36,450 bases of DNA from a candidate division TA06 bacterium (GTDB taxonomy: Bacteria; Hydrothermota; DG-26; E44-bin18). The stretch lies in the NCBI GenBank assembly GCA_004376575.1, contig SOJN01000110.1, positions 1-36,450 on the forward strand, given 5' to 3'. The translations under genes were made by a program, and so were the position numbers. Position 1 is the stretch's first letter; every line of letters begins with the position of its first letter. This document shows, in pieces, positions 7,504 through 34,628 of this stretch. The notes under the pieces were generated by a model. It saw only the letters and a program-made list of their open reading frames with translations, was not told the origin of the DNA and did no database searches.

Positions 7504-8001
7504 GGGGACGGTGCTTGACTTTTTGACATTTTGCCCTCAAAGACGATACTCTGGTTACTTCCTATGAGTAATTCTATCCCACCAAACCCCATAAGTCAAC
7601 CTCCCTGGCACGGTCATCGCCACATGTTCGTATATGCACAAGTTCACATGTGTACACGTGCGCACATGTGCAAGATCTGCGATCTCAGGTCACAGATCTT
7701 AGATTAGTTGTGCCAAATCAATACTATGTACACGAAAATCGAAAATAGAAAATCGTCGGAGATCCTGCTTAGTCTCTCTTGCTGAGACGGAGTCGAAGTT
7801 TAGAGAGAATTAGTCCTTCGCGAAGTCGGAGGGAGCTTGTCGAAGGGAAGATCGAAACACACAAAATCACGAACCCCCCTTACCCATCTCTTTTTTCCAC
7901 ATCTGCTCACCTGTTCATATGTTCATGTTCTCATATGTTCAAATGAGCATATGAGAATGTGAGAATGTGAGCGAATTGGGTTGGGGGGCTGTCCCCATGC
8001 C
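7504..8001 (+). repeat. Composite intergenic repeat, copy 2 (complete head to tail)
   Basis: It begins with GGGGACGGTGCTTGAC and ends with GGGGGGCTGTCCCCATGCC. In between are: the CCTCAAAGACGATACTCTGG block; the CACATGTGTACACGTG palindromic block (7622-7670); a GATCTGCGATC...AGATTAGTTGTGCC block; a 108-bp block (7748-7855) identical to 9923-10030; the CACGAAA...CCCCTTACCC block; and CATATG octamers. There are no coding frames. With the flanking sequence it fills the whole 7382-8131 gap. Confidence 0.85.
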
Positions 8002-8010
8002 TAACCGTTC

Positions 8011-8131
8011 GATGTCGCAGGGAATGGAGATAGGATATGGATGGGATATTGAGGCACTCTCGGAGGAAACGGAGAGAAACAGATAGGCCCAGCATAAGTC
8101 CCAAGCGCCATTCCTTGACCCTACCACAGTC
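8011..8131 (+). repeat. 120-bp block shared with 26444-26570
   Basis: The sequence from GATGTCGCAGGGAATGG to CCATTCCTTGACCCTACC matches 26444-26570 with scattered differences. Both copies end at or close to the 3' end of a minus-strand gene; here the boundary coincides with the stop codon of the 8132 ORF. Confidence 0.8.
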
Positions 8132-8539
8132 TTAAGGTGTCAGTGCGCTATCGCCAAGAGGATTCAAGGCATCATGTGGGGATAGCCGTGAGGAGCTTTC
8201 TCGAAAATGAAGATGGGAACCTGTTATATAGCCAATGGTGGCGCCCGGTTGGACAGTATCATCGTGGGGAAAATCCAGCAAACTCACATGCCAGTATCTA
8301 AACCTTCCGATCCAACGATCCCTCAACTCTGTGCTGTCCACAATGGAGGTGTCGGGGCAGTAGATCGAATCGGCAGCTTCATTTATGTCCACGCCTGCAT
8401 GAAAATATCCGACTCTGTACTCCCCCAGAGTGCTATTGATACCGTGTTGTCCATCTTGTGGTCTTACCGGCCATTGGTAGGCGGAAAGACTGCCTGCGCC
8501 AAGAAAGAACACTAATACGATTAAGATTTTCACTCTCAT
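8132..8539 (-). CDS. Short M23 (LytM)-like secreted protein, probably truncated
   Basis: 135 aa. Signal peptide at residues 1-20 (MRVKILIVLVFFLGAGSLSA). M23 zinc-peptidase landmarks are present: HAGVD (H47, D51) and HLHF (H109, H111), plus H84 in the position of the central His. The stretch between HAGVDI and the central His is much shorter than in typical M23 domains, so the core is internally reduced. The frame stops exactly where repeat block 8011-8131 begins, in the middle of a region that normally continues after DALNPLG. I infer a C-terminal truncation. M23 enzymes cleave peptidoglycan cross-bridges, but many members of this type are inactive. The ATG overlaps the stop of the upstream propeller gene (ATGA), so translation is probably coupled. 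Confidence 0.72.
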   Translation of the reverse strand: MRVKILIVLVFFLGAGSLSAYQWPVRPQDGQHGINSTLGEYRVGYFHAGVDINEAADSIYCPDTSIVDSTELRDRWIGRFRYWHVSLLDFPHDDTVQPGATIGYITGSHLHFRESSSRLSPHDALNPLGDSALTP

Positions 8540-9738
8540 TGTGTCCTCCTTAGCTGGAATACGCGGATTTCATTCCCAGTCACATAGCATAGCATATTGC
8601 CTTTGCTGTTTACTTTAAAAACACGTCTTCCCCCTCGATTAAGACCCTTACCGATGGCAAAATCGAGTATGACACTGCCATCTTCGGAAAAGATCATTAT
8701 TCTTTCTGAAGCATCTTTTGAACCCAGTTTTTCGTAATGCCAGAAGACACCTGCTACAAAAAATGGTGCTTCTGAAGGGAAGTCAAGGGTAGTGCCCAAA
8801 TTCAGTAACTGATAAGGGTCATCAGATTCATATTTCCAGAGTATCTTCTTTTTCCCGACATCTATCAGGAACACCAAGTTTCTCACGGCGACCGTCAAGA
8901 ATTTGCCATCGGGCGAGAAAGAAGACAACACCGAGCCCTCTTTCTCCAAGTCAAATTTCTCCAGAAAGGTACCCTCCTTCGTATAAAGCAACAGATGATA
9001 GATATAGCTCTTGCCTTCAGGAATTGCCTCGGGAATGGCTACATATTTTCCGTCTGGAGAAACGGCGATCAGATGCCCATGTTTTCTGCACGGCAAATCT
9101 ACTGTTTTATTGCCGATCTGCAAATAGTTGCTCTGTGTCTCTGTCCATTTGATTGTTGGTATGCCAGCAAGCATTGAAATATCGCCTTCGCGCTTTGTCA
9201 AATTCGCTTCAGTTTTTCCAGGAGTGCCACGGAAGTAGTAGACATCGTCATCAGCCCAAACATCCTTCCCGATTATCTCGTTGCCACTAGGAGATACCCA
9301 CCACCAGGAACCATAGACCCCTCCAATCGTCTTCACCACTTTCCCAGACATGTTCATTACGTCAACAGGCCCGTGATGAAACTCCCCATCATATTTCTCT
9401 GGATGCATGATTCCAATGTATTGTCCATTTTGCGAAATCCTGACCTGCGTCCATTCCTTCAGTTTCGTCTCCTTGATTACTTTCCCGGAACTATCCAAGT
9501 ACAGGATTGCCTTAGCGTTCTCGCAATTCCCTGTCACTATGACGCTCGGACAAAATAGCCCTTCTCTTTCCTTATCAAATGCAACATCGGTTATTCCCTC
9601 TGGGAACTCCTTGTCCCAAACCAGCTCTACGGTTGATTTCTGGTTTTTCTCCCCCTGAGCCGCTCGGACTTCTGCGAGGCCCAAGAGCGCTAGTCCCGTT
9701 GCAACGATCACCAGAGTCGCCATTCTTGCATTTCTCAA
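8536..9738 (-). CDS. Secreted beta-propeller protein
   Basis: 400 aa starting at TTG 9738, because AGGAGG lies just upstream; an in-frame ATG at 9723 is the alternative. Residues 1-26 are a signal peptide (LVIVATGLALLGLAEVRA). The rest is WD40/PQQ-like blades: WTQVRISQNGQYIGIM, LIAVSPDGKYVAIP, SSFSPDGKFLTVAV and VFLIDVGKKKILWKY. It is a paralogue of the proteins at 12465, 24823 and 29143; all begin the mature part with a V-x-L-V-W or similar strand and share SPDGxY/F blades. Propellers of this kind are binding platforms; no enzyme motif is seen. The first gene of a two-gene minus-strand unit with the M23-like ORF. The ribosome site lies at the edge of the repeat head at 9741. Confidence 0.85.
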   Translation of the reverse strand: MRNARMATLVIVATGLALLGLAEVRAAQGEKNQKSTVELVWDKEFPEGITDVAFDKEREGLFCPSVIVTGNCENAKAILYLDSSGKVIKETKLKEWTQVRISQNGQYIGIMHPEKYDGEFHHGPVDVMNMSGKVVKTIGGVYGSWWWVSPSGNEIIGKDVWADDDVYYFRGTPGKTEANLTKREGDISMLAGIPTIKWTETQSNYLQIGNKTVDLPCRKHGHLIAVSPDGKYVAIPEAIPEGKSYIYHLLLYTKEGTFLEKFDLEKEGSVLSSFSPDGKFLTVAVRNLVFLIDVGKKKILWKYESDDPYQLLNLGTTLDFPSEAPFFVAGVFWHYEKLGSKDASERIMIFSEDGSVILDFAIGKGLNRGGRRVFKVNSKGNMLCYVTGNEIRVFQLRRTQ

Positions 9739-9740
9739 GA

Positions 9741-10215
9741 TTCCTCCTCGGTGCTTGACAGTTTGACAGTATTAGCCCTGAGGACGATACGCGACACCTC
9801 TCTCCTCAAAGACGACAGAATCGTCACTTCCCACGAGTGATTCTATCCCATCCCAAGGCCAGAAAACACGAAAATCGAAGATCGAAAATAGAACCAATAA
9901 CCAACCTACGAAGGCGAAAATTGAAAATCGTCGGAGATCCTGCTTAGTCTCTCTTGCTGAGACGGAGTCGAAGTTTAGAGAGAATTAGTCCTTCGCGAAG
10001 TCGGAGGGAGCTTGTCGAAGGGAAGATCGACGCGCACGAAACCGCCAACCCCCCTTACCCACATCCTTTTTCCACATCTGGTCATCTGTTCATGTGTTCA
10101 TGTTCTCATATGCTCATATGAGCATGCGAGCGATTGAGCGCAGCTCTGATGTGTTGATATGTTAACAATTGTGCACATATCGACGGGTCAGCTAGTGGGT
10201 TGGGGGGCTGTCCCC
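9741..10215 (+). repeat. Composite intergenic repeat, copy 3 (complete)
   Basis: Head CCTCCTCGGTGCTTGACAG, then a block (9746-9860) almost identical to 22165-22267, the 108-bp block 9923-10030 identical to 7748-7855, the CACGAAACC/CCCCCTTACCC block, CATATG octamers, then the TGTGTTGATATGTTAACAATTG block with TCGACGGGTCAGCTAGTGGG, and the tail GGGGGGCTGTCCCC. No coding frame. Confidence 0.85.
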
Positions 10216-10272: not shown

Positions 10273-10345
10273 CTTTTCTGGGGCCTTGAAGTCTAAAGAC
10301 CGACCTGAAGGCTCTATCATTGAAGCAGGGGTAAAGGGGTCCCAA

Positions 10346-12370
10346 ATGAGAATGACTGCTCGGATGAAGAGTCACCGGCGGAGTTTCAGTCAAAAGAGTA
10401 ACACGCTGCTGGCTGCCTCCGTAGTCCTGCTTTTTGGCATTGAGGCCGCGGCATCGGTTCTCAATGTCCCCTTGGATTATCCCACAATCCAGGAAGCCCT
10501 TGATGCCGCGGCTCGCGGAGATACAGTAAAGGTTGCCCCGGGAATCTACAATGAAGATGTGACCATTTCAAAGCCCTTAGTACTCTGGGGTGCTGGGAGT
10601 TCTGTGACCACAGTTGCTGGAGGTGAAGCCCAGAGGGCAGTGAAGCTAGAGACAGACAGCGCTTTGGTTAGAGGATTTCGCGTTCAGAGCAGTAAGGGCG
10701 TAGGTGTCTATGTCTTTGGAGACAACAATGTCATCGAGGAAATGGAGATCTTGAATAGCTCACTCGGGATCGAAGTAGAAACCCCATATCAAAACACTGT
10801 TATCCAAAACAACATCATTTCAAACAATACTCACGGGGTTTTTCTGCGCCATGAGTCCGGCGGCTCCTTCATCATAGATAACGTAATTACTTTGAATGAC
10901 GGAGGTATTGCGTTGATGCGATCCTCTTTCAACACGATACTAAACAACACAATTTCGAATAGTAGTTATGACGGAGTCATACTTCGCAGATCAAAACATA
11001 ACACCATTAAGGGCAACCTGTTGGAAGGGAATGTGAGACATGGTTTCCACATCAGCCATTTTTCTGACAGCAACTTCGTTCTGAAGAACCGGGTCGTAGG
11101 AGTAGATAAGAATTCCGGGTACGGTTTCCATTTCGATCATGGAATTTCGAACGTCATTTGTGGAAATTTCGTATCTAACTACGAGATTGGCGTATGGATC
11201 TATAGACATAACAGCGACGAAATTATCAGTGAGAACACAATTGTCAACAATCAATTTGGCCTTGTTTTGGATGTTGTTGAAACGAATATGGTGTATCACA
11301 ATAATTTCGTTGAGAATGAGGTCCAGGTATTTGACCATTTCCCTTCCTTGAACGACTGGTATCATCCCGTACTGCTAGAGGGAAACTTCTGGTCGGATTA
11401 TCAGGGATCAGATGATGGGAGCGGCAGCGGCAAACACTCTATTGCAGGGGACGGGATAGGGGATACCGACATCCCCCATCCCGGTGCAGATTTCGATTTC
11501 TATCCTTTTATGGACAGAAACGGGTGGAGACCACCAAAGAGTGTGAAAGAGGAGGCGTTGGATGAATTGGCTGAGCTTATTGAATCCGTAGCTCACCCTA
11601 AGATTCGCAAGCATATTGAACATGCCTTTCGGGAGTTAGAGAAGACTCTTCCCTATTTCTCAGACAACTGGCACATTACCAAGCCCTCACGTGTATTTGT
11701 CCATGAGAAAAAGGTCACAAAGGAAGTGAGAAAGGCGTCCCGGTCCGCAAAGAAATACGACATCCCTGATTTTGAAGGGGTGATCAGCAAGCTCCGTGAG
11801 ATTGCTTTGTTTATGGTGGAGGCGGACTCCCTCCTAGCCGGGAAAGCAATCAGGGAAGCGGAAGCCTGTCCAGGGGCCAAGGAAAAGGAGATCAAGAAGG
11901 CAAAGAAGGAGATGACCAAGGCCTATGCAGAGCTGAACAAAGTAGACAAGAGTATGCGAAAGCTCGGCATCGAGTGGTACAAATATGACAAAGCAATCAA
12001 TCACTTCAAACACGCCTACAAACATGCCCACAAGGCTGTGAAGAAAAAGCGTGCGCTTCTTGCTGCCACTCCTTCATCTCCGCCTTTTGTGTTGCAGTCC
12101 GCTGTAAGCCCAAACCCTTTCCACGAAAACACCGCTATTCGCTACCAATTATCGGGTGCTGGAAAGACGATTCCTGTCTGTCTAAACATATATGACCTCA
12201 CGGGCAGAGTTATAAGGACTCTTGTGGATGAGCGCCAGGATCCGGGAGAGTACACAGTTCAGTGGAGGGGCAAGGATAGGGATGGACGCCAGGTTGCAGG
12301 CGGGGTCTACTTCTATAGACTTACAGCCGGAGACTTGGTATCCACGAAAAAGATGGTTCTTATGCGCTGA
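10346..12370 (+). CDS. NosD-like beta-helix protein with helical region and sorting domain (copy 1)
   Basis: ATG at 10346 matches the start region of the paralogue at 22683 and follows AAAGGGG; 674 aa. The frame extends 20 codons upstream without a ribosome site. Signal peptide at about residues 20-38. Residues about 40-375 are a right-handed beta-helix: it opens with NVPLDYPTIQEALDAA, has many N-x-I-x-x-N-x-I PbH1 coils, and closes with GNFWSDYQGSDDG...DGIGDTD, the usual end of NosD/CASH domains. Residues about 390-570 are Lys/Glu-rich helices, likely a stalk or binding region (YDKAINHFKHAYKHAHKA). Residues about 577-674 are the FlgD/T9SS-like sorting domain (SPNPFHENTAIRYQL, NIYDLTGRVIRTLV, GGVYFYRLTAGD, KKMVLMR). 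It is probably a surface-displayed carbohydrate-binding or lyase-like protein; no catalytic residues were recognised. Followed after 94 bases by a propeller gene, an arrangement repeated at 22.7-26.1 kb. Confidence 0.88.
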   Translation: MRMTARMKSHRRSFSQKSNTLLAASVVLLFGIEAAASVLNVPLDYPTIQEALDAAARGDTVKVAPGIYNEDVTISKPLVLWGAGSSVTTVAGGEAQRAVKLETDSALVRGFRVQSSKGVGVYVFGDNNVIEEMEILNSSLGIEVETPYQNTVIQNNIISNNTHGVFLRHESGGSFIIDNVITLNDGGIALMRSSFNTILNNTISNSSYDGVILRRSKHNTIKGNLLEGNVRHGFHISHFSDSNFVLKNRVVGVDKNSGYGFHFDHGISNVICGNFVSNYEIGVWIYRHNSDEIISENTIVNNQFGLVLDVVETNMVYHNNFVENEVQVFDHFPSLNDWYHPVLLEGNFWSDYQGSDDGSGSGKHSIAGDGIGDTDIPHPGADFDFYPFMDRNGWRPPKSVKEEALDELAELIESVAHPKIRKHIEHAFRELEKTLPYFSDNWHITKPSRVFVHEKKVTKEVRKASRSAKKYDIPDFEGVISKLREIALFMVEADSLLAGKAIREAEACPGAKEKEIKKAKKEMTKAYAELNKVDKSMRKLGIEWYKYDKAINHFKHAYKHAHKAVKKKRALLAATPSSPPFVLQSAVSPNPFHENTAIRYQLSGAGKTIPVCLNIYDLTGRVIRTLVDERQDPGEYTVQWRGKDRDGRQVAGGVYFYRLTAGDLVSTKKMVLMR

Positions 12371-12464: not shown

Positions 12465-13751
12465 ATGCCTAAAGGACAGAAAGCTGTGCTTGTAATAGGT
12501 GTACTGGGTCTCTGCCTGACACATGCTGCCCTGCTTGCCCATGCTGAAGATATCGAGAAGAAACAGGAAAAAATCAACGTTAGACTTGTATGGAAGAGCG
12601 TACACGCTGATAGATTCATCCCGGACCGAAAAACCTTTCCTCCCCCAGAAATCCAAGCAGAGATAGAATCAGAAAGCACATCAGAGGTTGCCAAACGATT
12701 TCTGATCAACACCTTGAGGGAACAAGTGGCGAAACATGATCGGCTTGTCTTTTTTGAAGATGGAAAGGTGATGGATGTGAAGGAACAAGGACATCACTAT
12801 CTCCTCTTTTCGCCAGGAGGTAAATATGTCGGTTTTGGGGGCGGAACGAAGGGAATGACGGAAGAGGAACTTGGCCGAGTAGGTTATGTCGGTGAGTGGG
12901 GCCCAATAACACAGTTCATCTTGATGACAGTGCAAGGTGAATTTCTCTGGAAAAAGGTTCGCGTCTTTGCACCGATTAGGATTTTGGAAAATGGCGAGGT
13001 TGCAGTTTCTCACAGAACAGTTGGCGGTGACAGAGGGCTTATACTGTACAGTCTTACTGGTGATACTCTCTTCGATCTCCCCAAACAAGAAGCAACGAAA
13101 CCCAGTCGTTACGCTGATAACAGTGAAAAACCGATCTATGCACACTTGGACAAAGGATATCTGTGGGTCTTTGCCGTCGGAGGGAAGGTTCTTTTGAAGG
13201 GGAAGTTAGAAGGCATAGGAGCCTGGTCTGTTGACCTTTCTGACGATGGTAGATACATCTTTCTCGATGGAAGAAAGGCAGGGGCTCCAAGATTTCCACA
13301 CACTGAGTGGCTCCTTGACCAGCGTGGTCGGATAATTAGAGAGTTTTCGTTTCGTGCTCCTTCTGTATTGGATTTCTCACCAGATGGAGACTTTCTTGCG
13401 ATTCTAGACGATGGAAAGCTAAGGCTCATAGAGTGCTCAGCAGGTCAGATACGCAGGGAGATTTCAGCGGAAGAGAAGGGTGATTATTTGGTGAATACTG
13501 AGATTTCTGCAAAAGGAAATCTTGTTCTTCTTAGGAATATCCTCATAGAGGACAGAAACTTCGGCGTAATCAGCTGGCGATTAAGGATATTCGACAATGC
13601 GGGAAACGTTGTGTGGCAGGAGACATTCCCTTCCAAGGATAGGTGGGGACACGGAGGCACCTTCATGGCAGATGATGGATCCTATTTCTTTGCCAATTCG
13701 GATAATTCGCTGTATTGCTATGCAGTTGTTCGACAAAGAATGCAGCACTGA
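12465..13751 (+). CDS. Secreted beta-propeller protein (copy 1)
   Basis: ATG at 12465 follows AAAGAAAGGG; 428 aa. Signal peptide at residues 1-27 (KAVLVIGVLGLCLTHAALLAHA). A charged N-terminal stretch, NVRLVWK...IPDRKTFPPPEIQAE, precedes propeller blades such as LLFSPGGKYVGFGG, VDLSDDGRYIFLDGRK, WLLDQRGRIIREFSF, DFSPDGDFLAILDDG and MADDGSYFF. It is the partner of the upstream beta-helix gene and paralogous to 24823 (same length class, near-identical N-terminus). The conserved pairing suggests the two secreted proteins act together, perhaps one as surface receptor and one as soluble binder; that is inference. No enzymatic motif is visible. Confidence 0.87.
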   Translation: MPKGQKAVLVIGVLGLCLTHAALLAHAEDIEKKQEKINVRLVWKSVHADRFIPDRKTFPPPEIQAEIESESTSEVAKRFLINTLREQVAKHDRLVFFEDGKVMDVKEQGHHYLLFSPGGKYVGFGGGTKGMTEEELGRVGYVGEWGPITQFILMTVQGEFLWKKVRVFAPIRILENGEVAVSHRTVGGDRGLILYSLTGDTLFDLPKQEATKPSRYADNSEKPIYAHLDKGYLWVFAVGGKVLLKGKLEGIGAWSVDLSDDGRYIFLDGRKAGAPRFPHTEWLLDQRGRIIREFSFRAPSVLDFSPDGDFLAILDDGKLRLIECSAGQIRREISAEEKGDYLVNTEISAKGNLVLLRNILIEDRNFGVISWRLRIFDNAGNVVWQETFPSKDRWGHGGTFMADDGSYFFANSDNSLYCYAVVRQRMQH

Positions 13752-14227
13752 AAGGGATCAAATGTCAAAATGTTCTTAGATGTTCTTGCTCGGTGCCGTC
13801 CGAATACTAGAAGGATCCATGACTTGACAGTTTGACCCGACTACGTCGTTCCTGACTCCGCCGGGCTTCGCATTTTTCAGGCTTCAGCCCAACGCTGAAT
13901 TCATTTTGTAGTGAAGTCCACCACGGACGCCAGCTCTTCTATGCCATCTACTTGTAGCTTGCCAACAAGATCTGCGATCATAGATCTACGCTCTCAGATT
14001 AGTTGTGCCAGATTTGTGCCAACTTGGACGCAGAAAAGACGAAGATCGTAAATCGAAACACACGGACCCCTTACCCAGCTCCTTTTTCCACATCTGCTCA
14101 TCTGTTCATGTGCTCAAATGCTCATGTGTTCACATGTTCATGTTCTCATATGCTCAATTGAGCATATGAACATGTGAGCGAATTGGATTGGGGGCTGTCT
14201 CTGCGCCTTCTCACTCAAATGCGAGGA
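13752..14227. other. Gap filled by composite repeat copy 4
   Basis: No gene seen. From 13788 it holds repeat copy 4. The 13850-14030 part (GACTCCGCCGGGCTTCGCATTTTTCAG ... AGATTAGTTGTGCC) is also found at 26160-26315, extending the duplication of the preceding gene pair. Confidence 0.7.
13788..14200 (+). repeat. Composite intergenic repeat, copy 4
   Basis: Head GCTCGGTGCC..., a TTGACAGTTTGACCCGACTACG block, GATCTGCGATCATAGATCTACG block, TGTGCCAGATTTGTGCC, the CCCTTACCC block, an array of CATGTG/CATATG octamers containing a perfect 24-bp palindrome at 14146-14169, and a diverged tail GGGGGCTGTCTCT. Confidence 0.8.
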
Positions 14228-16388: not shown

Positions 16389-16742
16389 TCTAGGGACGCT
16401 GTTTGACATTTTCTTCCTCAAAGACGACATTCTCGTCACTTCCCAAAGAGAATTGTATCCCACGGCCCACCAAAAGTCAACGGGAGCGTGGGGGCGGTGC
16501 TTGGGTGTGCCGCGAAGCTCCTTAGCTCTTGCCCGCCCATGTCTGGGTTGACTCCGTCGGGCTTCGCCGGTGTGAGTTCGGCCCCCATACTGGAAACCAC
16601 GAAGATCGAAACACACGAAACCACGAAACCCCCTTACCCATCTCCTTTTTCCATATCTGCTCATCTGTTCATGTGTTCATATCCTCATGTGCTCATATGA
16701 GCATATGAGGATGTGAGCGAATCGGGTTGGGGACAGGCCCCG
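16389..16742 (+). repeat. Composite intergenic repeat, copy 5 (inverted tail core)
   Basis: Head AGGGACGCTGTTTGACATTTTC, CTCAAAGACGACATTCTCG block, a GCGGTGCTTGGGTGTGCCGCGAAGC block that recurs at the right window edge (36400-36450), TTGACTCCGTCGGGCTTCGC, the CGAAACCACGAAACCCCC block, CATATG octamers, and tail GGGGACAGGCCCC. In the other copies the tail reads GGGGGCTGTCCCC, so here its centre is reverse-complemented. Confidence 0.8.
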
Positions 16743-17800: not shown

Positions 17801-18079
17801 GCTCGGTGCTTGAGTTTCTGACATTCCTGATGTCTGAAAGAGTTGTGCGAGATCTGCACCAAATCCTCACCAACAGACACTACGATCACTGTTGCGAAAG
17901 AATTTGACAACCATCCGCGAATATGGAAGAATTCTCTTGAGTGAAATGATAAGGCGCGGAACCATGACACACTGCTGGAATCTGTCAGGATGTTGGACTA
18001 GAGAAGGTCCACACTGTGGGGACATGCATTTGGACCTGATTGAAGCGGAGGTTTTGCCAAAATGCCAAACACCGTCCCC
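17801..18079 (+). repeat. MITE-like 279-bp element interrupting a gene
   Basis: Left end GCTCGGTGCTTGAG..., right end GCCAAACACCGTCCCC; read inwards these are imperfect inverted repeats (CGGTG[C/T]TTG, TG[A/G]CATT). The interior, from GTGCGAGATCTGCACCAAATCC through TTGCGAAAGAATTTGACAAC to GGAGGTTTTGCC, is highly similar to 27728-27965. It has no coding capacity, and it cuts the gene that starts at 18197. Confidence 0.78.
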
Positions 18080-19565: not shown

Positions 19566-20200
19566 GGGGACGGTGCCCTCCGAATACTCGAAGGATTTTC
19601 AACTTGACTTTGTGACCCGACTGCGTCTTCACTGGCCTCGCCTTTCTTGACTCCGTCGGGCTTCGCGCCTGGCTTCGCATTTTGCCCTCAAAGACGATAC
19701 TCTGGTTACTTCCTATGAATGATTCTATCCCATCCCAAGGCCAGAAGACACGAAAATCGAAAATAGAAAATCCTCATGCCCGCATATTCACACATGCACA
19801 AGTTCACATGTGTACACGTGGGCACATACGCAAGGTCTGCGATCTTAGGTCACAGATCTTAGATTAGTTGTGCCAGATTTGTGCCGACCTGATGCTGTGA
19901 ACACGAAAATCCCTGTCACCACAGCCCACGCCCACCCGAAACTGCGAAATTCCACCCCTACACCCGTCTCCGCCTCCGGAATTGAGAAACTAGACATCCC
20001 ATGACGGCATAGGCAGATCTGCTCATTTGTTCACGTGCTCAATTGAGCATATGAGGATGTGAGCGAATGAGCGCAGCTCTGATGTGTTGATATGTTGACA
20101 CCCTTCGGCTGCGCTCAGGATCCCAACCATTGGATTGTGTATATTTCGGTTAATTGTGCACATGTCGACGGGTCAGCTAGTGGGTTGGGGGGCTGTCCCC
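19566..20200 (+). repeat. Composite intergenic repeat, copy 6 (longest)
   Basis: Head GGGGACGGTGCCCTCCG, TTGACTCCGTCGGGCTTCGC, a CATTTTGCCCTCAAAGACGATA block, CACATGTGTACACGTG block, CAGATCTTAGATTAGTTGTGCC block, a unique segment 19915-20005, CATATG octamers, then a 109-bp tail (20092-20200) identical to 22444-22552, ending GGGGGGCTGTCCCC. The last bases form the 3' end of the 20177 ORF. Confidence 0.85.
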
Positions 20201-22682: not shown

Positions 22683-24728
22683 ATGAAAATGAGAATGACT
22701 GCTTGGAAGAAGACTCACCGGTCGAGCTTCAGTCAAATGAGCAACTGGTTGCTGGCTGCCTCCGTAATTCTGTTTTTTGGCATTGAGGCCTTAGCATCGG
22801 TCCTCAATGTTCCATCGGACTACCCCACAATTCAGGAGGCCCTTGATGCTGCGTCCCGCGGAGACACAGTAAAGGTTGGGCCGGGAATCTACTACGAAAA
22901 TGTGAGAATACCGAAGCCTCTCGTTCTCTGGGGCTCCGGTAGTAGCTCGACCACGATTGATGGAAGCGGAATCGATATGGTGGTGAGGGTGGAGGCTGAC
23001 AGTTGCCTTGTGAAGGGCTTTCTTGTTCAGAACAGTGGCGTTAACGATCCAACGGGCGTGGGGGTCTACATCTTCGGAGACGACGCCGTCATCGAGGAAA
23101 TGCAGGTCTCAAATACTCGAATGGGTGTTGAGATACAAGCTCCTCATCAGAACACTGTCGTGCGAAATAATCTTTTCTCGGACAATAGCTTTGGGATCTG
23201 GCTTCATTACAGGACGAATGGCACTTTAATCACTGGTAACACAGTTTTGGGTAAATATGATTATGGTGTTTGTTTGGCCAATACTGATTTCAACAGGATA
23301 GAGAATAACAGAATCTCTAATGGAAGAAGCGGAATCCGTCTCCGGCGATCCGACAACAACATCATTCAGGGCAACATATTGGATGGCATTGGAAGAATGG
23401 GAATCCATCTCAGCTATTCCGACAGCAACTTGGTTCTTAAGAATCGGTTTTACGGAATGGGCACAGGTTGGGGGTGGGGCCTTTTCCTTGGGGAGCGTTC
23501 GATTTCGAACGTCATCAGTGAAAATTTCCTGTCTGACCACGACATTGGCATTTGGGTTTATAGAGATAGCAGGGACGGAATCATCTGTGAGAACACCATT
23601 GTCAACAATCGATATGGCCTTGTTTTGGATGAAGTTGAAACGAATATGGTTTTTCACAATAATTTCGTTGAGAATGAGCTCCAGGTATTTGACCTATCTC
23701 CTTCCTTGAACGACTGGTATCATCCCATACTATTGGAGGGAAACTTCTGGTCGGACTACGATGGAGTAGATGATGGGAGCGGCAGCGGGAAGCATTCCAT
23801 TGCAGGGGACGGAATAGGAGATACCGACATCCCCCATCCTGGTGCAAATTACGATTTCTATCCCTTTATGGAGAGAAACGGGTGGAGACCGCCAAAGAGT
23901 ACGAAGAAGGATGCACTGGATGAACTGGCTGGTCTCATGGAATCGATCACTCACCCGAAGGTTCACAAGCACATTAAACATGCCTTTCAGGAGCTAGAGA
24001 AGACTCTTCCATATTTCTCAGACAACTGGCACATTACCAAAGCTTCACGTGTCTTCGACCGTGAGAAAAAGGTTACAAAGGAAGTGCGAAAGTCATCTCG
24101 GTCCGCAAAGAAATACGAAATCCCTGATTTTGAAGAAGTGATCAGCGACCTCCGCGAAATTGCTTTGTACATGGTGGAGGCGGATTCCCTCCTTGCCGGG
24201 AAGGCAATCAGAGAAGCTGAAGCATACCCAGAAGCCAAGCAAAAAGAGATCAAAAAGGCAAAGAAGGAAATGACTAAGGCCTATGCGGAATTGAGCAAAA
24301 TAGACAAGAGCATGAAGAAGCTCGGGATCGAATGGTACAAATATGACAAAGCAATCAATCATTTCAAACATGCCTACGAACATGCCCACAAGGCTGTGAA
24401 GAAAAAGCATGTGCTTCTTGCTGCCACTGCTTCATCTCCGCCTTTTGTGTTGATGTCCGCTGTAGGCCCAAACCCTTTCCACGAAACCACCGCTATTCGC
24501 TACCAATTGTCGGGTGCTGGAAAGACGATTCCTGTCTGTCTAAACATATATGACCTCACAGGCAGAGTTATAAGGACTCTTGTGGATGAGCGCCAGGATC
24601 CGGGAGAGTACACAGTTCAGTGGAGGGGCAAGGATAGGGATGGACGCCAGGTTGCAGGCGGGGTCTACTTCTATAGACTTACAGCCGGAGACTTGGTATC
24701 CACGAAAAAGATGGTTCTTATGCGCTGA
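22683..24728 (+). CDS. NosD-like beta-helix protein with helical region and sorting domain (copy 2)
   Basis: ATG at 22683 (or 22689) after AAAGGGG; 681 aa. Same architecture as the 10346 protein: signal peptide (LLAASVILFFGIEALA), NVPSDYPTIQEALDAA opening the beta-helix, PbH1 coils with NTVVRNNLFSDNSFGIWL and similar, a GNFWSDYDG closure near residue 350, a Lys/Glu-rich helical part, and a FlgD/T9SS sorting domain at about 584-681 ending KKMVLMR. The beta-helix differs strongly from copy 1, while the helical part is highly similar and the sorting domain almost identical. Such a pattern suggests diversification of the ligand-facing domain on a conserved anchor. It is followed by its own propeller gene. 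Confidence 0.88.
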   Translation: MKMRMTAWKKTHRSSFSQMSNWLLAASVILFFGIEALASVLNVPSDYPTIQEALDAASRGDTVKVGPGIYYENVRIPKPLVLWGSGSSSTTIDGSGIDMVVRVEADSCLVKGFLVQNSGVNDPTGVGVYIFGDDAVIEEMQVSNTRMGVEIQAPHQNTVVRNNLFSDNSFGIWLHYRTNGTLITGNTVLGKYDYGVCLANTDFNRIENNRISNGRSGIRLRRSDNNIIQGNILDGIGRMGIHLSYSDSNLVLKNRFYGMGTGWGWGLFLGERSISNVISENFLSDHDIGIWVYRDSRDGIICENTIVNNRYGLVLDEVETNMVFHNNFVENELQVFDLSPSLNDWYHPILLEGNFWSDYDGVDDGSGSGKHSIAGDGIGDTDIPHPGANYDFYPFMERNGWRPPKSTKKDALDELAGLMESITHPKVHKHIKHAFQELEKTLPYFSDNWHITKASRVFDREKKVTKEVRKSSRSAKKYEIPDFEEVISDLREIALYMVEADSLLAGKAIREAEAYPEAKQKEIKKAKKEMTKAYAELSKIDKSMKKLGIEWYKYDKAINHFKHAYEHAHKAVKKKHVLLAATASSPPFVLMSAVGPNPFHETTAIRYQLSGAGKTIPVCLNIYDLTGRVIRTLVDERQDPGEYTVQWRGKDRDGRQVAGGVYFYRLTAGDLVSTKKMVLMR

Positions 24729-24822: not shown

Positions 24823-26091
24823 ATGCCTAAAGGACAGAAAGTTGTGCTTGTAATAGGTGTACTGGGTCTCTTCCTGACTGATGTAGGTTTGCTTGCCCAT
24901 GCAGAAGATATCCAGAAGAAACAGGAAAAAATCAACGTTAGACTCGTCTGGAAGAGGGCATATGCTGGTAAGCTCATTCCGGACCGCAAAACATTTCCCC
25001 CTCCAGAGATTCAGGCAGAGATAGAATCAGAAAGCACATCAGAGGTTGGGAGGCGGTTTCTGATAAACGCTCTGAGAGAGCAAGTAGCGAAACACGATCG
25101 GCTAGTCTTTTTTGAAAGTGGAAAGATAATGGATGTAAAGGAAGAAGGATATGGTTTCGTCTATTTCTCGCCCAATGGGGAATACATTGGTTTTGGGAGT
25201 GGAAAGAAGGGAATGACGGATGAGGAATTTGCCCAAGCAGATCCATTTGCCGGGTTGATGAGCCAGCTTGTTCTAATGACAAAGGAGGGCGAATTCTTAT
25301 GGAGGAAGACCTTGGTGCCGAATAGGGTTAACATGCTTGAGAGCGGAGAGGTAGCTCTGGCGCGCTGTGGTGAGTTTCCAGTATCACCATGTCCTCTCTC
25401 AAAGATATATGGTCGCAGAGGCGAGTTGATCCTTGATTTTAGGAACAAACAAAAATCCACTTTGATGGCCGATCCAAAAGAGAAACCAATATTCCCACAC
25501 TGGGAAAAAGCGACCAAGACCCTGTGGCTTTTTGCAGCCGAAGGCAAAGTGGTTCTAAGAACAAGCGCCAATGAGTTCAGTGATCCCTCAACTGTTTTCT
25601 ATACCGAAAGGGTAATTCTGTCCGATGATGGGGACTATGTATTTCTCTATGGGCGGAAGTCAGGACAGAGATCTCCTATACCAGGTATTCAGTTCTTGAT
25701 GGACAAGAAAGGTGAGATTATCCGCAAGTTCTCATTCGATCATCCTAAAGATTTTGACTTCTCACCTAATGGAGACTTCTTGGCTGTGATTGACAATGGG
25801 AAAAGTCTAGATTTTATTGAGTCTTCGACGGGAAGAACTCTGTGGCAAAACCCGAAGAAGAACAAAGGAAACCGTCTTTGGAGTGTAGCAGTCTCAGAAA
25901 ATGGAGAGTTTATACTGTTGAACGGCAGGTTGAGGGCCGAAAAGAAATGGAGCGGTTTGCTGCTGAGTAAGAAGGGCGAGATTATCTGGCGCGAGAGACT
26001 GGGCCTGGCAGACGTTTTCATTGCCCGTGATGGTTCCTTCTTTTTCATTGCGGCGGGAGATTCTCTTCATTGCTATGCAATTGACTATTAG
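24823..26091 (+). CDS. Secreted beta-propeller protein (copy 2)
   Basis: ATG at 24823 after AAAGAAAGGG; 422 aa. Signal peptide (VVLVIGVLGLFLTDVGLLAHA) and the stretch NVRLVWKRAYAGKLIPDRKT are nearly the same as in the 12465 protein; the blades diverge later. Blade motifs: VYFSPNGEYIGFGSGKKG, VILSDDGDYVFLYGRK, FLMDKKGEIIRKFSF, DFSPNGDFLAVIDNG and VAVSENGEFILLNG. It is a partner of the second beta-helix gene (94-base gap, identical to copy 1). Probably secreted and ligand-binding; function unknown. Confidence 0.87.
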   Translation: MPKGQKVVLVIGVLGLFLTDVGLLAHAEDIQKKQEKINVRLVWKRAYAGKLIPDRKTFPPPEIQAEIESESTSEVGRRFLINALREQVAKHDRLVFFESGKIMDVKEEGYGFVYFSPNGEYIGFGSGKKGMTDEEFAQADPFAGLMSQLVLMTKEGEFLWRKTLVPNRVNMLESGEVALARCGEFPVSPCPLSKIYGRRGELILDFRNKQKSTLMADPKEKPIFPHWEKATKTLWLFAAEGKVVLRTSANEFSDPSTVFYTERVILSDDGDYVFLYGRKSGQRSPIPGIQFLMDKKGEIIRKFSFDHPKDFDFSPNGDFLAVIDNGKSLDFIESSTGRTLWQNPKKNKGNRLWSVAVSENGEFILLNGRLRAEKKWSGLLLSKKGEIIWRERLGLADVFIARDGSFFFIAAGDSLHCYAIDY

Positions 26092-26120: not shown

Positions 26121-26570
26121 ATTCTTCCTCGGTGCTTGAAAGTTTGACCCGACTACGTCCTCTTGACTCCGCCGGGCTTCGCATTTTTCAGGTTTCAGCC
26201 CAGTGCTGAAGCCAACAACGCACGCCAGCTCTTGTATGCTATCCACCTCCAGCTTACCAACTAGATCTGCGATCATAGATCTACGCTCTCAGATTAGTTG
26301 TGCCAGATTTGTGCCGAATCATCACCAATAGATGTCTCGACCACTGTTGGGAAAGAATTTGACAACCGTCCACGAATGTGGGGAGGTTCCTTTGACTGAA
26401 GCTGGCAGGAAAGCGCTATGCTCGAGATGGGCACATACCGTTTGATGTGGAAGGGAATGGAAAGCAGATATGGATGGGATATTGAGCCACTCTCAGAGGA
26501 AACGGAGAGAAACAGATAGGCTCTGCCCAAGTCTCAGGCACCATTCCTTGACCCTACTACAATCTCAATC
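26121..26570 (+). repeat. Composite repeat made of head, duplication tail and two other blocks
   Basis: Head TTCCTCGGTGCTTGAAAG, then 26150-26315 matches 13840-14030 (GGGCTTCGCATTTTTCAG ... AGATTAGTTGTGCC). Then comes the block with GAAAGAATTTGACAACCGTCC (26340-26400), as in the 17801 element, then 26444-26570, which matches 8011-8131. No gene was seen in the gap 26092-26597. Confidence 0.8.
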
Positions 26571-27509: not shown

Positions 27510-27965
27510 AGGGACGGTGCATGACCCTCCGAATACTCCCTTCGGATTCCCTCAGAACAAGCTCAGGATTTTCAACCCTCCGACTCCACGAAGGATCTAC
27601 GACTTTCTGACAAAATCTGCCTGCAAAAAACCGATACTGTCTGAGATTCTGACTTGCCTTTCCTTCCCGTAGTTGAACTCTACCCAAAATCAACAGCGTT
27701 GTCAAGCACCGTGTGACGCACAGACGGGCTGTGCGAGATCTGTACCAAATCATCACGAATAGATGCCTCAATCACTGTTGCGAAAGAATTTGACAATCAC
27801 ACCCGAATGTGGGAGAATTCTTTTGAGTGAAATGACAAGGCGCGGAACCACGACACACTGCTGGAATCTGTCAGGATGTTCGACTAGAGAAGGATCACAC
27901 TCTGGGGATAAGCATTTGGACGTGATTGAAGCGGAGGTTTTGCCAAAATGCCAAGCACCGTCCCT
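27510..27965 (+). repeat. Element bounded by perfect AGGGACGGTGC inverted ends
   Basis: Starts AGGGACGGTGC (27510-27520) and ends GCACCGTCCCT (27955-27965), an exact 11-bp inverted repeat. The left half is specific to this copy (TCCGAATACTC... head fragments). The right half (27728-27965) matches 17841-18079. The right end is read through by the 27884-29128 gene and supplies its last 27 codons. Confidence 0.8.
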
Positions 27966-30793: not shown

Positions 30794-31167
30794 AGGGACG
30801 GTGCTTGGCATTTTGGCATTTTGCCCTCAAAGATAATACTCTTGTTACTTCCTATGAATGATTATATCCCATCCCAAGGCCAGAAAACACGAAAATCGAA
30901 GATCGAAAATAGAACCAATAACCAACCTACGAAGGCGAAAATCGAAAATCGTCGGAGATCCTGAGCAAGGTCGAAGGGAAAATCGACACACACGAAATCA
31001 CGAAACCCCTTACCCATGTCCTTTTTCCACATCTGCTCATCTGTTCATGTGCTCAATTGAGCATATGAGGATGTGAGCGAATGAGCGCAGCTCTGATGTG
31101 TTGATATGTTGACAATTGTGCACATGTCGACGGGTCAGCTAGTGGGTTGGGGGGCTGTCCCCATGCC
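30794..31167 (+). repeat. Composite intergenic repeat, copy 8 (complete)
   Basis: Head AGGGACGGTGCTTGGCATTT (30794-30813), whose first 25 bases match the reversed right end of the 17801 element with a single mismatch; CTCAAAGATAATACTCTTG block; GAAGATCGAAAATAGAACC block shared with 9870-9920; CACGAAATCACGAAACCCC block; CATATG octamers; TGTTGATATGTTGACAATTG block; tail GGGGGGCTGTCCCCATGCC. It lacks the 52-bp insert present in copies 6 and 7. Confidence 0.85.
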
Positions 31168-31260
31168 CGCTCCTTTCTTGGGTTAGTAGTCTACCGGATG
31201 TTGATCAGTTCCATCCGGCCTTATCAACCAAAGTTTACCATCTCTTCCGTCTGAAGATTC

Positions 31261-31460
31261 TTCCTCGGTGCTTGACAGTTTGACATTTGTTGTGCCTGAA
31301 AGATGTACGCCGGATTCGCGCCAAATCATCACGAACAGATACCTCGATCACTGTTGTGAAAGAATTTGACAACCCTTGGTGGATGTGGAAGCATTCTTTT
31401 GAAGGAGACGACCGCGGTGCAATGGTAAGGCATCGGCCCGAGATGCGATGCAAGAATCTC
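31261..31460 (+). repeat. Repeat block with conserved TTGACA, upstream of the SIR2 gene
   Basis: Head TTCCTCGGTGCTTGACAG and interior CCAAATCATCACGAACAGAT...GTGAAAGAATTTGACAACCC match the first half of the 17801 and 27510 elements; similarity fades after about 31420. Confidence 0.75.
31366..31394 (+). promoter_or_regulatory. Candidate promoter of the SIR2-like gene, inside the repeat
   Basis: TTGACA (31366-31371), 17-base spacer, AAGCAT (31389-31394). The -35 is perfect and the -10 is weak. The same arrangement (TTGACA-17-AAGAAT) occurs in the sister copies at 17906 and 32902, and the SIR2 gene starts 137 bases downstream. Confidence 0.4.
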
Positions 31461-31530
31461 TCAACATATTCGATTATCAAGCTCAGTATGCTCCACGCTG
31501 GATGCCCAGATACTGGGAGGGACCCCTCAG

Positions 31531-32766
31531 ATGCTAACCGGCCTACTCATGGGTGCGGGGGCCTCATATGAACTCGGGATGCCACTGGTATGGGACCTCA
31601 CTGCTCAGCTACGACAATGGTTGACACCCGAGAAGCTTTGGCAACTCAATGTGTCGTGGCGGTCGCGTGGCGGGGGATATCCCGACCGCATAATAGCAGA
31701 TTTTGTGCCGCTTCTTGTCAGACCAGACCTCCACTACGAGAGTCTACTGGGCCATCTGGAGACACAGTATCGCCGGGCATCGCACTTACGACAGCATTAT
31801 CACAGCCTGTATCAGTGGCTGGTTGACATAGTCTATCATATCCTTTACCTCAGACATATCAGGGGGGAACCGGTCATTCTCGCAGCGATGCGTTTCTTCG
31901 ACGGACTGGCCGGTCTTGCGGAGCAGAGCAAGCCATTATGGGTCTTCTCACTCAACCATGACGTTCTCATCGAATGCATTGCTGTCCGTCACGGCATACA
32001 CGTATGTTCGGGCTTTCAGGATGGTATCATTGAATTGCCGCGGCGAGACCGCGCCGGCACAGAGGTTGGGCGCCTGAGAGCCGAGGTCATGACGGGTAGC
32101 CGATTTGAAAAGACTGGGCTCTTGTTTCTACGGCGTGGCAGTCCGGGTATCAACCTCTTGAAGATTCACGGCTCGCTCGATGTATTCGCGTTCAAAGACG
32201 GCAAAGACCTCTTAAAACTGCTTCCCATGGATTCGAGCGTCGAGGGGGTGATTGCATCCTTGCGCGCAGCCAACGAAGAGCTGCTTTATGTGGACTCGGC
32301 CCGTCCAAATGAGCCCGTAAAGGTGACGAATGAAATCGCGTACGCGGACGACTCTGGCGAAATGCAGTTTCTACGTCGGTCGCTGCTTGCAGGCATGTTC
32401 AAGTTCGATCGCAGTGCTAGTCAAGTGTTACCCATCCGGCTACTGGACTCTTTTCGTACAAACGTCAACCATGTTACGCACTTGGCCTGCGTCGGATATG
32501 GCTTCGGAGACATCCATATCAATCAAATCCTCCGTGGTTGGCTGGAATTCACTGCGCAACGGCGGCTTGAAATAGTAGCCCCAGGCGCCAAGGATATCCC
32601 TCAATGTCTCCTTCATCTGGCGCCCCAGGTAATGCTCACAAGCTCAACTACGACGGACTACCTCGCACAATTTGCTGCCACACCGCTCTCGGAGGAAGAA
32701 AGAATAGCCAAGGATTCCTGGAACTTGTTGAGGGAGGCCCAACGTAAGGACAAGGGCTATGCGTGA
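31531..32766 (+). CDS. SIR2-like NAD-binding protein (putative defence NADase)
   Basis: ATG at 31531 with GGGAGGG upstream; 411 aa, no signal peptide. SIR2-fold landmarks are in order: MGAGAS (residues 7-12) with GMPLVWDL as the NAD-binding loop; FSLNHDVLIE (139-148), the counterpart of TTNYDxLLE, with N142 and D144; KIHGSLD (211-217) with the expected catalytic His 213; and VGYGFGDIHINQIL (321-334). This set fits the bacterial SIR2-like family (SIR2_2 type) whose members degrade NAD+ on phage infection in systems such as Thoeris, DSR and pAgo-SIR2. No second domain is obvious beyond ~380. The next gene on the same strand is a PD-(D/E)XK-like nuclease. A defence role is inference from family and context. 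Confidence 0.84.
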   Translation: MLTGLLMGAGASYELGMPLVWDLTAQLRQWLTPEKLWQLNVSWRSRGGGYPDRIIADFVPLLVRPDLHYESLLGHLETQYRRASHLRQHYHSLYQWLVDIVYHILYLRHIRGEPVILAAMRFFDGLAGLAEQSKPLWVFSLNHDVLIECIAVRHGIHVCSGFQDGIIELPRRDRAGTEVGRLRAEVMTGSRFEKTGLLFLRRGSPGINLLKIHGSLDVFAFKDGKDLLKLLPMDSSVEGVIASLRAANEELLYVDSARPNEPVKVTNEIAYADDSGEMQFLRRSLLAGMFKFDRSASQVLPIRLLDSFRTNVNHVTHLACVGYGFGDIHINQILRGWLEFTAQRRLEIVAPGAKDIPQCLLHLAPQVMLTSSTTTDYLAQFAATPLSEEERIAKDSWNLLREAQRKDKGYA

Positions 32767-32858
32767 TTGTGACACGAGAGGTAGGCGGTGCACAAGGACA
32801 GGGTCTCTACGCTGAAGATCGTAGATCGACGACTGAGCATTCAACACTTCATTCTCCG

Positions 32859-33003
32859 TTGGTTCTCGGGTCTCTGGGCTCGATCACTGCTGCGAAAGAA
32901 TTTGACAACCGTCCGCGAATGTGGAAGAATTCTCTTGACCGAAGTGGCAAGACACGGAATCAACATAGACTTCGGGAATCCGTCAAGATATCAGATCAAG
33001 TAG
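32859..33003 (+). repeat. TTGACA-containing repeat block between the SIR2 and nuclease genes
   Basis: CTCGATCACTGCTGCGAAAGAATTTGACAACC...GTGGAAGAATTCTCTTGACCG matches the interior of the 17801 and 27510 elements and the copies at 31345 and 33873. Neither terminal inverted repeat is evident here. Confidence 0.75.
32902..32930 (+). promoter_or_regulatory. Candidate promoter of the nuclease-like gene, inside the repeat
   Basis: TTGACA (32902-32907), 17-base spacer, AAGAAT (32925-32930), 104 bases before the start codon. The hexamers and spacing are conserved in several dispersed copies of this block. Confidence 0.45.
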
Positions 33004-33033
33004 ATTAGCATACATTGGGTTGGCCCAAGGAAG

Positions 33034-33816
33034 ATGAAAGACTGGAACGGAAAAGACGTTGCAACCGCAAAGAGCAAGGGCGGGGTACTGGTGCTCGCTC
33101 ATCCGCTTGACAACCTGATCTCCACGGGATGTCTTCCGTGGCCCCCGCCGGAGGTCGTTCAGAAGCTCTACCAGAGTCGGCAGGTTCGAGCATTTGGCGA
33201 AGACCAACTCAAAATCTTCCGCCGCTTTGGGCTGGGGTATTACAGCGATTTACAGTCGATTCACAGTGAAGATGCTATCACATGGTCTGTTTTCGGTACC
33301 GTTGCACGGGCAGAGCGAAGTGAAAGGGAGAATTGGCTTGCGGACCTCTTTCAACTCCTCAGGCTTCCTGAGGCATCACCCGACCACGCGGACATATTTC
33401 TGTGGCGGAGGATTCCGCATCCCGACACCCTTGTTCCTGGCGGTCCAGAAATCGATGTTGGCATCATAACTTCCAATGCGCTGGTCCTTGGAGAGGCCAA
33501 ATGGAAGTCGCGCGTGAACGCGACCCAAGGGAGGGAAAAGGACAAGGACCAGATTCAACTGCGTGTCGAGTTTCTGCAGAAATACGGGCATCGCCTCTTT
33601 CCGAGAATCCCCCTGCATGCAGTGGTCGGCGTCAGCCTCCTCCCCGATGCTTTCGCTAAGACAGTGCCTGAGGGGGTGACATTCAGGTCGGTCACGTGGG
33701 AAAGCATTTGCTCTCTTCCCTCTCATCCCCATGCCGCCGAACTGCAGCGATACTTTGAGTGGAAGAGAAGACTCATGATGCCGAAGCACAATCGGATTGA
33801 AAGCGGCGAGAAATAG
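33034..33816 (+). CDS. PD-(D/E)XK nuclease-like protein
   Basis: 260 aa; ATG at 33034 after AAGGAAG (short spacing). No signal peptide. The core EIDVGIITSNALVLGEAKWK gives D141 and E154-x-K156, the PD-(D/E)XK catalytic signature, followed by a helix with Q173/Q175 (KDQIQLRVEFL). The upstream helix SIHSEDAITWSVFG supplies E79, as in many restriction-endonuclease-like folds. The C-terminus has beta strands (LHAVVGVSLLPDAF, VTFRSVTWESIC) and a basic tail. It is probably a metal-dependent DNA nuclease; specificity is unknown and no methylase accompanies it. It lies 267 bases after the SIR2-like gene on the same strand, each gene preceded by the same repeat block. The pair may be one anti-phage module, or two independent cassettes. 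Confidence 0.78.
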   Translation: MKDWNGKDVATAKSKGGVLVLAHPLDNLISTGCLPWPPPEVVQKLYQSRQVRAFGEDQLKIFRRFGLGYYSDLQSIHSEDAITWSVFGTVARAERSERENWLADLFQLLRLPEASPDHADIFLWRRIPHPDTLVPGGPEIDVGIITSNALVLGEAKWKSRVNATQGREKDKDQIQLRVEFLQKYGHRLFPRIPLHAVVGVSLLPDAFAKTVPEGVTFRSVTWESICSLPSHPHAAELQRYFEWKRRLMMPKHNRIESGEK

Positions 33817-33859
33817 GGAGCGATTTTGGTCCAAGCTCTGGAAGATACTTAATGTCTCT

Positions 33860-34054
33860 TGGGTCTTTGGGCTCGATCACTGTTGCGAAAGAATTTGACA
33901 AGCGCCCGCGAATGTGGAAAGATACTCTTGAACGAGGCAATCGCGGTGCCAAGCGTTACGCCTTCAATTGTCAAAAGATCAAGTCGGAGATCCTTCGAGT
34001 ATTCGGAGCCTGTCCTTCGTAGCTCGTCGGAGTTACGGAGGGGGCACCGTCCCC
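33860..34054 (+). repeat. Repeat block with inverted terminal GCACCGTCCCC
   Basis: CTCGATCACTGTTGCGAAAGAATTTGACAAGC and CGCGAATGTGGAAAGATACTCTTGAACG repeat the block seen before the SIR2 and nuclease genes. The right end, GGGGGCACCGTCCCC at 34040-34054, is the inverted end of the family. It closes the nuclease cassette on its right side. Confidence 0.75.
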
Positions 34055-34070: not shown

Positions 34071-34628
34071 TTAGCCTAAGTGTTCGATCAAGATTTTTGT
34101 TCCAATTCCAATCAGAACCAAACCGCCGAGGATTTCCATCTTGTTCCCGAAAACATGCCCCAGTCTATTGCCGGAAAAAACACCTATAAATGACAGAACG
34201 AATGTCACTACCCCAATTATGACTATTGGAGTGACGACCGACACACCGATGAACGCAAATCCAAAACCCACTGCCAACGCGTCAATGCTGGTAGCGACTG
34301 AAAGCAGCAACAGGACATATATGTTCAAGTAGTCGTACTTCCTCTCCGACGGTGCTGGTCTTCCTGACTCGTAAATCATCTTGGCACCTATGAAACTCAG
34401 AAGTGAAAACGCAATCCAGTGGTCTATACCTGAGATGAAATTCGCTAGGCCCATACCTGACAACCACCCCAGCAGCGGCATGATTCCCTGAAATGCTCCA
34501 AAGAACAATGCTATTCGAAAGGCATCTCTCACCTTCAACTCTCTTATTGCTACTCCGCCGGAAACGGATACGGCAAATGCGTCCATCGCCAAACCGAATG
34601 CTATGAACAAAATGTCAGCAATCTGCAT
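34071..34628 (-). CDS. mntP: Manganese efflux pump MntP
   Basis: 185 aa, normal family length. Six hydrophobic segments in two threefold halves carry the MntP signatures GLAMDAFAVSVSGG (residues about 12-25) and ATSIDALAVGFGFAF (about 111-125), whose Asp residues are needed for Mn(II) export in characterised MntP. ATG at 34628; the ribosome site is weak (GGAAAG). Inner-membrane protein exporting Mn2+. In other bacteria it is controlled by MntR and by the yybP-ykoY riboswitch. Neither was recognised here, although a perfect CAGGTTAACCTG palindrome lies just upstream. It is divergent from the His-tailed EamA transporter gene, a second possible metal-linked protein. Confidence 0.93.
   Translation of the reverse strand: MQIADILFIAFGLAMDAFAVSVSGGVAIRELKVRDAFRIALFFGAFQGIMPLLGWLSGMGLANFISGIDHWIAFSLLSFIGAKMIYESGRPAPSERKYDYLNIYVLLLLSVATSIDALAVGFGFAFIGVSVVTPIVIIGVVTFVLSFIGVFSGNRLGHVFGNKMEILGGLVLIGIGTKILIEHLG

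What the first reader, a model, noticed from the sequence alone, without database searches (positions are those of the whole stretch)
31261..34054. SIR2-like protein plus PD-(D/E)XK nuclease: candidate undescribed defence pair
A SIR2-fold protein with an intact NAD-site (GAGAS, N142/D144, H213) is followed on the same strand by a restriction-like nuclease (D141, E154-x-K156). Each gene is preceded by the same repeat block, and another copy closes the region. SIR2-like NADases are established anti-phage effectors; a stand-alone two-gene SIR2/PD-(D/E)XK arrangement is not a system I can name. The pair could couple NAD+ depletion to nucleic-acid sensing or cleavage, or be two independent cassettes.
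Basis: partly seen in the sequence, partly recalled or inferred. Interest (0 to 1): 0.7.

Follow-up and report, generated by a model that had tools for sequence, protein, structure and literature searches.

The report
Stand-alone SIR2 gene beside unrelated nuclease
Two neighbouring genes that look like separate anti-virus genes, one predicted to destroy the cell's NAD+ and one predicted to cut DNA, sit together here apparently by chance in a repeat-rich accessory region, because neither is found beside the other in any other sequence examined.

Summary
ORF1 (31531-32766, 411 aa) is a SIR2-fold protein with an intact NAD site; its model matches the SIR2 subunit of Nezha (SIR2-HerA) best. ORF2 (33034-33816, 260 aa) carries PD-(D/E)XK residues (E79, D141, E154-x-K156, Q173) kept in nine relatives. 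The shared block is real, but it is a genome-wide repeat (20 copies of a 60-bp core), not a mark of this pair: it also precedes a NucC-like DUF6602 nuclease, a DUF5677 gene, a GrpB-like gene and orphan genes. Eight further SIR2 loci (prophages, phage structural-gene regions, a Vibrio integron cassette) lack this nuclease. Five Thermodesulfobacteriota genomes with close nuclease relatives lack this SIR2 family. The SIR2 family is in 0 of 395 genomes of that phylum and, in the window's own phylum, only in this genome (1 of 147). A 267-bp gap with its own repeat and promoter-like copy separates the two genes. Best reading: two independently acquired single-gene accessory (probably defence) cassettes; the SIR2 protein is a Nezha-like NADase without HerA, a new member of a known kind. 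The repeat is not an attC site; its cassette-like, uniformly oriented layout is the least explained part.

The parts
31255..31411 (+). Repeat block A upstream of the SIR2 gene: D18 module (31255-31284), left module, 60-bp core (31343-31402)
31531..32766 (+). SIR2-like protein, 411 aa: G8AGAS12, S140-L-N142-H-D144, H213, G322YGFGD327-x-H329-x-N331
   Evidence: model pLDDT 72.6, pTM 0.75; best PDB fold match is Nezha SIR2, E 1.5e-11
32879..32938 (+). Repeat core B in the 267-bp gap between the two genes; promoter-like TTGACA-17-AAGAAT at 32902-32930
   Evidence: two promoter-like sites found in the stretch against 1.7 expected, so the scan alone is weak
33034..33816 (+). PD-(D/E)XK-type nuclease, 260 aa: S78-E79-D80, D141, E154-A-K156, Q173
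   Evidence: relatives; remote relatives match REase-ARP weakly and PADLOC PDC-M15A
33872..33931 (+). Repeat core C, closing copy, followed by mntP on the opposite strand (34071-34628)
17883..17940 (+). Further copy of the core repeat, not near SIR2 or the nuclease
26336..26381 (+). Further copy of the core repeat, beside a TIGR00027 methyltransferase gene
27767..27826 (+). Further copy of the core repeat

Best explanation
Two independently acquired single-gene accessory cassettes that happen to be neighbours. The SIR2 protein is most likely a stand-alone Nezha-type NADase that depletes NAD+ when a phage is sensed and so stops infection (abortive infection). The downstream gene is most likely a stand-alone PD-(D/E)XK DNase of a small family, acting on foreign or damaged DNA. 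Each gene has its own upstream repeat block, which probably carries a promoter. Shown here: sequence motifs, SIR2 fold by prediction, separate contexts, lack of co-occurrence, repeat between the genes. Inferred: NADase and nuclease activity, role in defence, promoter activity of the block.
For: SIR2: PADLOC SIR2 models; all NAD-site residues kept in relatives; Foldseek best hits are E. coli SIR2-HerA SIR2 chains over the full length, E 1.5e-11, then KomBC, DSR2, Avs5. N142 and H213 are the kind of residues whose mutation (N168A, H227A) abolishes V. cholerae Nezha immunity (PMC11559045; correspondence inferred from motif). Stand-alone contexts: Vibrio plasmid integron cassette with attC-like repeats on both sides (attC hairpin z = -27); beside a repressor-like gene in a prophage-like contig (L085, with the near-identical L086); after virion genes or terminase (L033, L035, L034); in a tail region (L032); in L022. 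A nuclease-family HMM finds nothing in the SIR2 loci, and a SIR2 HMM finds nothing in the nuclease loci, with positive controls ringing. Nuclease: 5 Thermodesulfobacteriota genomes have close relatives with varied neighbours (HD and DUF2779 genes in L049; membrane protein in L021) and no SIR2 family. SIR2 family in 0 of 395 genomes of that phylum and 1 of 147 of the window's own. No relative of ORF2 in 59 genomes of the window's phylum. The gap of 267 bp holds core copy B.
Against: Both genes lie on the same strand with similar repeat blocks, so co-regulation is possible. Only five close nuclease relatives were found, and several relatives lie at contig ends where one neighbour cannot be seen (L021, L048, L051 for the nuclease; L033-L035 for SIR2). 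Two SIR2 loci (L022, L032) have an HNH_5 gene nearby, so a loose association with nucleases in general is not excluded. Defence has not been shown for either gene, and the SIR2 fold match has TM-scores of only about 0.5.
Confidence: 0.8

Rival explanations
1. A real two-gene defence system: the SIR2 NADase and the nuclease act together, one sensing or cutting nucleic acid and the other depleting NAD+.
For: Adjacent, same strand, each preceded by the same block. Coupling of an effector with a nuclease is known in other defence systems (for example HerA with DUF4297; PMC11291478 abstract).
Against: No co-occurrence in 8 further SIR2 loci and 5 further genomes with a close nuclease relative; 267-bp gap with an intervening repeat; the repeat is shared with many unrelated genes.
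Confidence: 0.06
2. The region is an integron array (or integron without integrase) and the repeats are attC sites.
For: Single genes between direct repeats of uniform orientation; cassette-like gene content (DUF6602, DUF5677, GrpB-like, orphans); a homologue of the SIR2 gene is a true integron cassette in Vibrio.
Against: The core does not form an attC hairpin: top strand z about -1, bottom strand only -4.9 kcal/mol, against -21 to -22 kcal/mol and z about -27 for the Vibrio attC control run the same way. No integron integrase: best TIGR02249 score 93 against a cut-off of 265, and generic recombinases ring in all 14 control genomes.
Confidence: 0.05
3. The SIR2 protein needs HerA or a long-B Argonaute encoded elsewhere, as in Nezha or BPAS.
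For: Best structural match is Nezha SIR2; weaker PADLOC matches to Argonaute-associated SIR2.
Against: No Piwi gene in the genome. No HerA-like gene was recognised next to the SIR2 gene here or in the other SIR2 loci (read from ORF lists, no HerA profile was run).
Confidence: 0.07

Closest known systems
Nezha (SIR2-HerA) SIR2 subunit, PDB 8sub / 8j4u
   Same: Full-length fold match, size (411 against about 390-400 aa), NAD-site residues
   Different: About 16% identity; NCBIfam NF042942 at 28 bits against a cut-off of 500; no HerA gene recognised beside it
Long-B Argonaute-associated SIR2 (bAgaS, BPAS; PMC10620215)
   Same: SIR2_2-type domain with NAD+ depletion as output; PADLOC Aga_SIR2 hits
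   Different: No Piwi protein in the genome
Single-gene defence cassettes in integrons and prophages (Darracq et al. and Getz et al. 2025, as reviewed in PMC12409362; Rousset et al. 2022, PMC9122126)
   Same: Homologues of this SIR2 gene sit in an integron cassette and in prophage or phage accessory positions
   Different: The window itself is neither an integron nor a recognisable prophage; no activity tested
REase-ARP (PF22558) and PADLOC PDC-M15A nucleases
   Same: Remote relatives of ORF2 match these; same SED ... D ... ExK ... Q layout
   Different: ORF2 itself matches neither library

Membership tests
SIR2-type NADase effector | NAD-site residues GAGAS, N, D, H plus C-terminal G-x-G-F-G-D | tested here: met
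   conserved across relatives, with D144 replaced by Y in L034
SIR2-type NADase effector | SIR2 fold | tested here: met
   Model pLDDT 72.6, pTM 0.75; Foldseek E 1.5e-11 to 8sub, TM about 0.5
SIR2-type NADase effector | NAD+ hydrolysis | not testable with these tools
   Needs an enzyme assay
Nezha (SIR2-HerA) | HerA gene next to SIR2 | tested here: not met
   The neighbouring ORFs are the nuclease, mntP (PF02659) and ORFs on the other strand; judged from the ORF list and Pfam hits of neighbours, no HerA profile search of the whole genome
BPAS (long-B Argonaute plus SIR2) | Piwi-domain protein | tested here: not met
   No PF02171 match in the genome; control rings in M. jannaschii
PD-(D/E)XK nuclease | D ... 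(E/D)xK catalytic motif with upstream acidic residue and Q | tested here: met
   E79, D141, E154, K156, Q173 kept in nine relatives
PD-(D/E)XK nuclease | alpha-beta core fold | tested here: inconclusive
   Model pLDDT 42.9 from two sequences; order of elements is compatible only
Two-gene SIR2 plus nuclease system | Conserved adjacency or co-occurrence | tested here: not met
Integron cassette array | attC hairpin sites | tested here: not met
   with Vibrio attC as positive control
Integron cassette array | Integron integrase IntI in the genome | tested here: not met
   best 93 bits against cut-off 265; assembly 97% complete, so absence is not absolute

The most novel reading that the evidence does not exclude
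The core repeat marks the junctions of a cassette-collecting array that is not an integron: single accessory or defence genes are inserted between directly repeated, promoter-bearing blocks, by homologous or unknown site-specific recombination at an invariant GAAAGAATTTGACAA stretch.
Probability: 0.1. Interest if true: 0.6.

Novelty: new member of a known kind. Interest (0 to 1): 0.28.

Why it matters
It adds a small SIR2 family that resembles the SIR2 half of Nezha, for which no HerA partner was recognised, and that travels in prophages, an integron and a genomic island, which suggests that SIR2 can sense and act without a helicase partner. It also shows that adjacency of two defence-like genes in one genome is weak evidence for a joint system. 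If the repeat blocks were cassette junctions, they would be a gene-collecting arrangement outside integrons.

Tried and rejected
Integron or attC reading: rejected by folding against a Vibrio attC control and by the absence of an integron integrase. Rfam scan of the region: only sub-threshold microRNA chance hits. Nuclease structure: AlphaFold from two sequences too poor for a fold search, so none was run. BFVD fold search of the SIR2 model: no significant match. PDB sequence searches: no meaningful match. Plasmid and phage tblastn for the nuclease: no match; IMG/VR scans for the nuclease: none. Core repeat in 39 relatives: none; exact 19-mer of it in viral contigs: none. A coding reading of the core repeat (frame SITVAKEFDNRPRMW...) was considered and not supported: mismatches fall evenly over codon positions, 51, 43, 43. 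A first HMM from the close nuclease rows failed to build; the HMM from all ten rows was used.

Full report
What is there. The window holds two ORFs on the + strand, 31531-32766 (411 aa) and 33034-33816 (260 aa), 267 bp apart, flanked and separated by three copies of one repeat.

The SIR2 protein. Pfam SIR2_2 is below its cut-off, but PADLOC SIR2 models hit down to 2e-16. Homologues at 54, 32, 27 and 26% identity, two at 36% and one at about 30% on a Vibrio plasmid were found. Alignment shows G8AGAS12, N142, H143, H213, G322, G326-D327, H329 and N331 invariant, with D144 replaced in one of six. The model built from six sequences (pLDDT 72.6, pTM 0.75) has as best PDB matches the SIR2 subunit of E. 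coli SIR2-HerA (Nezha; 8sub, 8j4u; E 1.5e-11, TM about 0.5, 16% identity), followed by KomBC, DSR2 and Avs5. In V. cholerae Nezha, N168A or H227A in the SIR2 active site abolishes immunity (PMC11559045). That these correspond to N142 and H213 is inferred from the motifs. NADase activity and abortive infection are inferred, not shown.

Contexts of the SIR2 family. Vibrio parahaemolyticus plasmid NZ_CP034567: in an integron array, with attC-like repeats on both sides; these repeats fold as attC should, z about -27. IMG/VR contigs: beside a repressor-like gene (L085; the near-identical L086 is a second contig of the same kind), after a virion morphogenesis-like gene (L033, L035), after a terminase gene (L034), in a tail region next to an HNH_5 gene (L032), and in L022 with a CAP12-type TIR gene and an HNH_5 gene nearby. 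None has the window's nuclease: an HMM of the nuclease family finds nothing in 83 kb of these loci, with its controls ringing. In L033-L035 the DNA held ends just after the SIR2 gene, so the downstream neighbour there is unknown. Phages and satellites are known carriers of such genes (PMC9122126), and integron cassettes too (PMC12409362).

The nuclease. ORF2 has no library match. A 59% identical relative lies in a Thermodesulfobacteriota MAG. Of 395 genomes of that phylum five have close relatives and three have remote ones. SED (78-80), D141, E154-A-K156 and Q173 are kept in all nine relatives; remote relatives match PF22558 REase-ARP just below cut-off and PADLOC PDC-M15A. The structure model is too weak to confirm the fold. 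Neighbours differ: an HD gene and a DUF2779 gene overlapping it in L049, a membrane protein in L021. The SIR2 family is absent from all five of those genomes and from all 395. The empty result has no positive in it, but the same profile rings in the window's genome at 1e-172. In 147 genomes of the window's own phylum only this genome has the SIR2 family, and in 59 relatives neither gene is found.

The repeat. The core of 60 bp (CTCGATCACTGTTGCGAAAGAATTTGACAACCGTCCGCGAATGTGGAAGAATTCTTTTGA) has 20 copies in the 3.0-Mb genome, 83-98% identical to it, and none in 39 relatives. Left and right modules around the core are shuffled between copies. Copies cluster: 6 of 20 lie in this 36-kb window (binomial 1e-7), and within each contig with several copies all point the same way (C66 5, C49 3, C107 2, C110 6; chance 2e-4 if copies were independent). 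Some copies share longer flanks through duplication (for example 17844-18078 and 27730-27964), so independence is not strict. Genes lying between two copies are in 8 of 9 cases on the same strand as the repeat. Downstream genes elsewhere include a DUF6602 NucC-like nuclease (C14), DUF5677 (C112), a GrpB-like gene (C49; identified by eye, not by profile), a UvrD-family helicase-nuclease (C45) and orphans (C66, C107). The core holds an invariant TTGACA with a variable -10-like element after 17 bases; the consensus scan finds this at copy B only and no excess over shuffles, so promoter function is an inference. It is not an attC site and no integron integrase was found.

Conclusion. The genes are best read as two independent accessory cassettes, likely both of defence type, each with its own upstream block. 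The pair as a system is not supported. The SIR2 protein is a member of a known kind: a Nezha-like SIR2 for which no HerA partner was recognised. The arrangement of the repeats deserves a separate look.

Limits.

Noticed in passing
G000:C66, C49, C107, C112, C14, C45, C130, C44 and window 17883, 26336, 27767, 31343, 32879, 33872: A 60-bp core repeat with shuffled left and right modules separates single accessory genes in uniform orientation in an unnamed MAG; absent from 39 relatives. Mechanism of spread unknown.
   Followed up: partly
L012:211-1116 (G000:C112) and window 31255-31284: A Y1 (IS200-like, RAYT-type) transposase gene is bracketed by inverted copies of the D18 module that also opens the block upstream of the SIR2 gene; the window's many other intergenic repeats may be REP elements mobilised by it.
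   Followed up: partly
window 10286-12370 and 22683-24728; 12465-13751 and 24823-26091: Two neighbouring secreted-protein genes are duplicated as a block about 12.3 kb apart.
   Followed up: no
window 2684-2758, 7896-7986, 10071-10153, 14087-14193, 16650-16740, 20004-20078, 31018-31100: Palindromic repeats built of TGCTCATATG-like 8-base units (D1 and I1-I17).
   Followed up: no
L009:4483-5397 (G000:C66): An orphan 304-aa protein in a repeat-bounded position; by eye it resembles cyclase-like proteins, with no Pfam or PADLOC match.
   Followed up: partly
L022:6391-7326 and 7705-8880: A CAP12/Pycsar-type TIR gene and an HNH_5 gene lie downstream of the SIR2 homologue in an IMG/VR contig, with repeated DNA between them.
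   Followed up: partly
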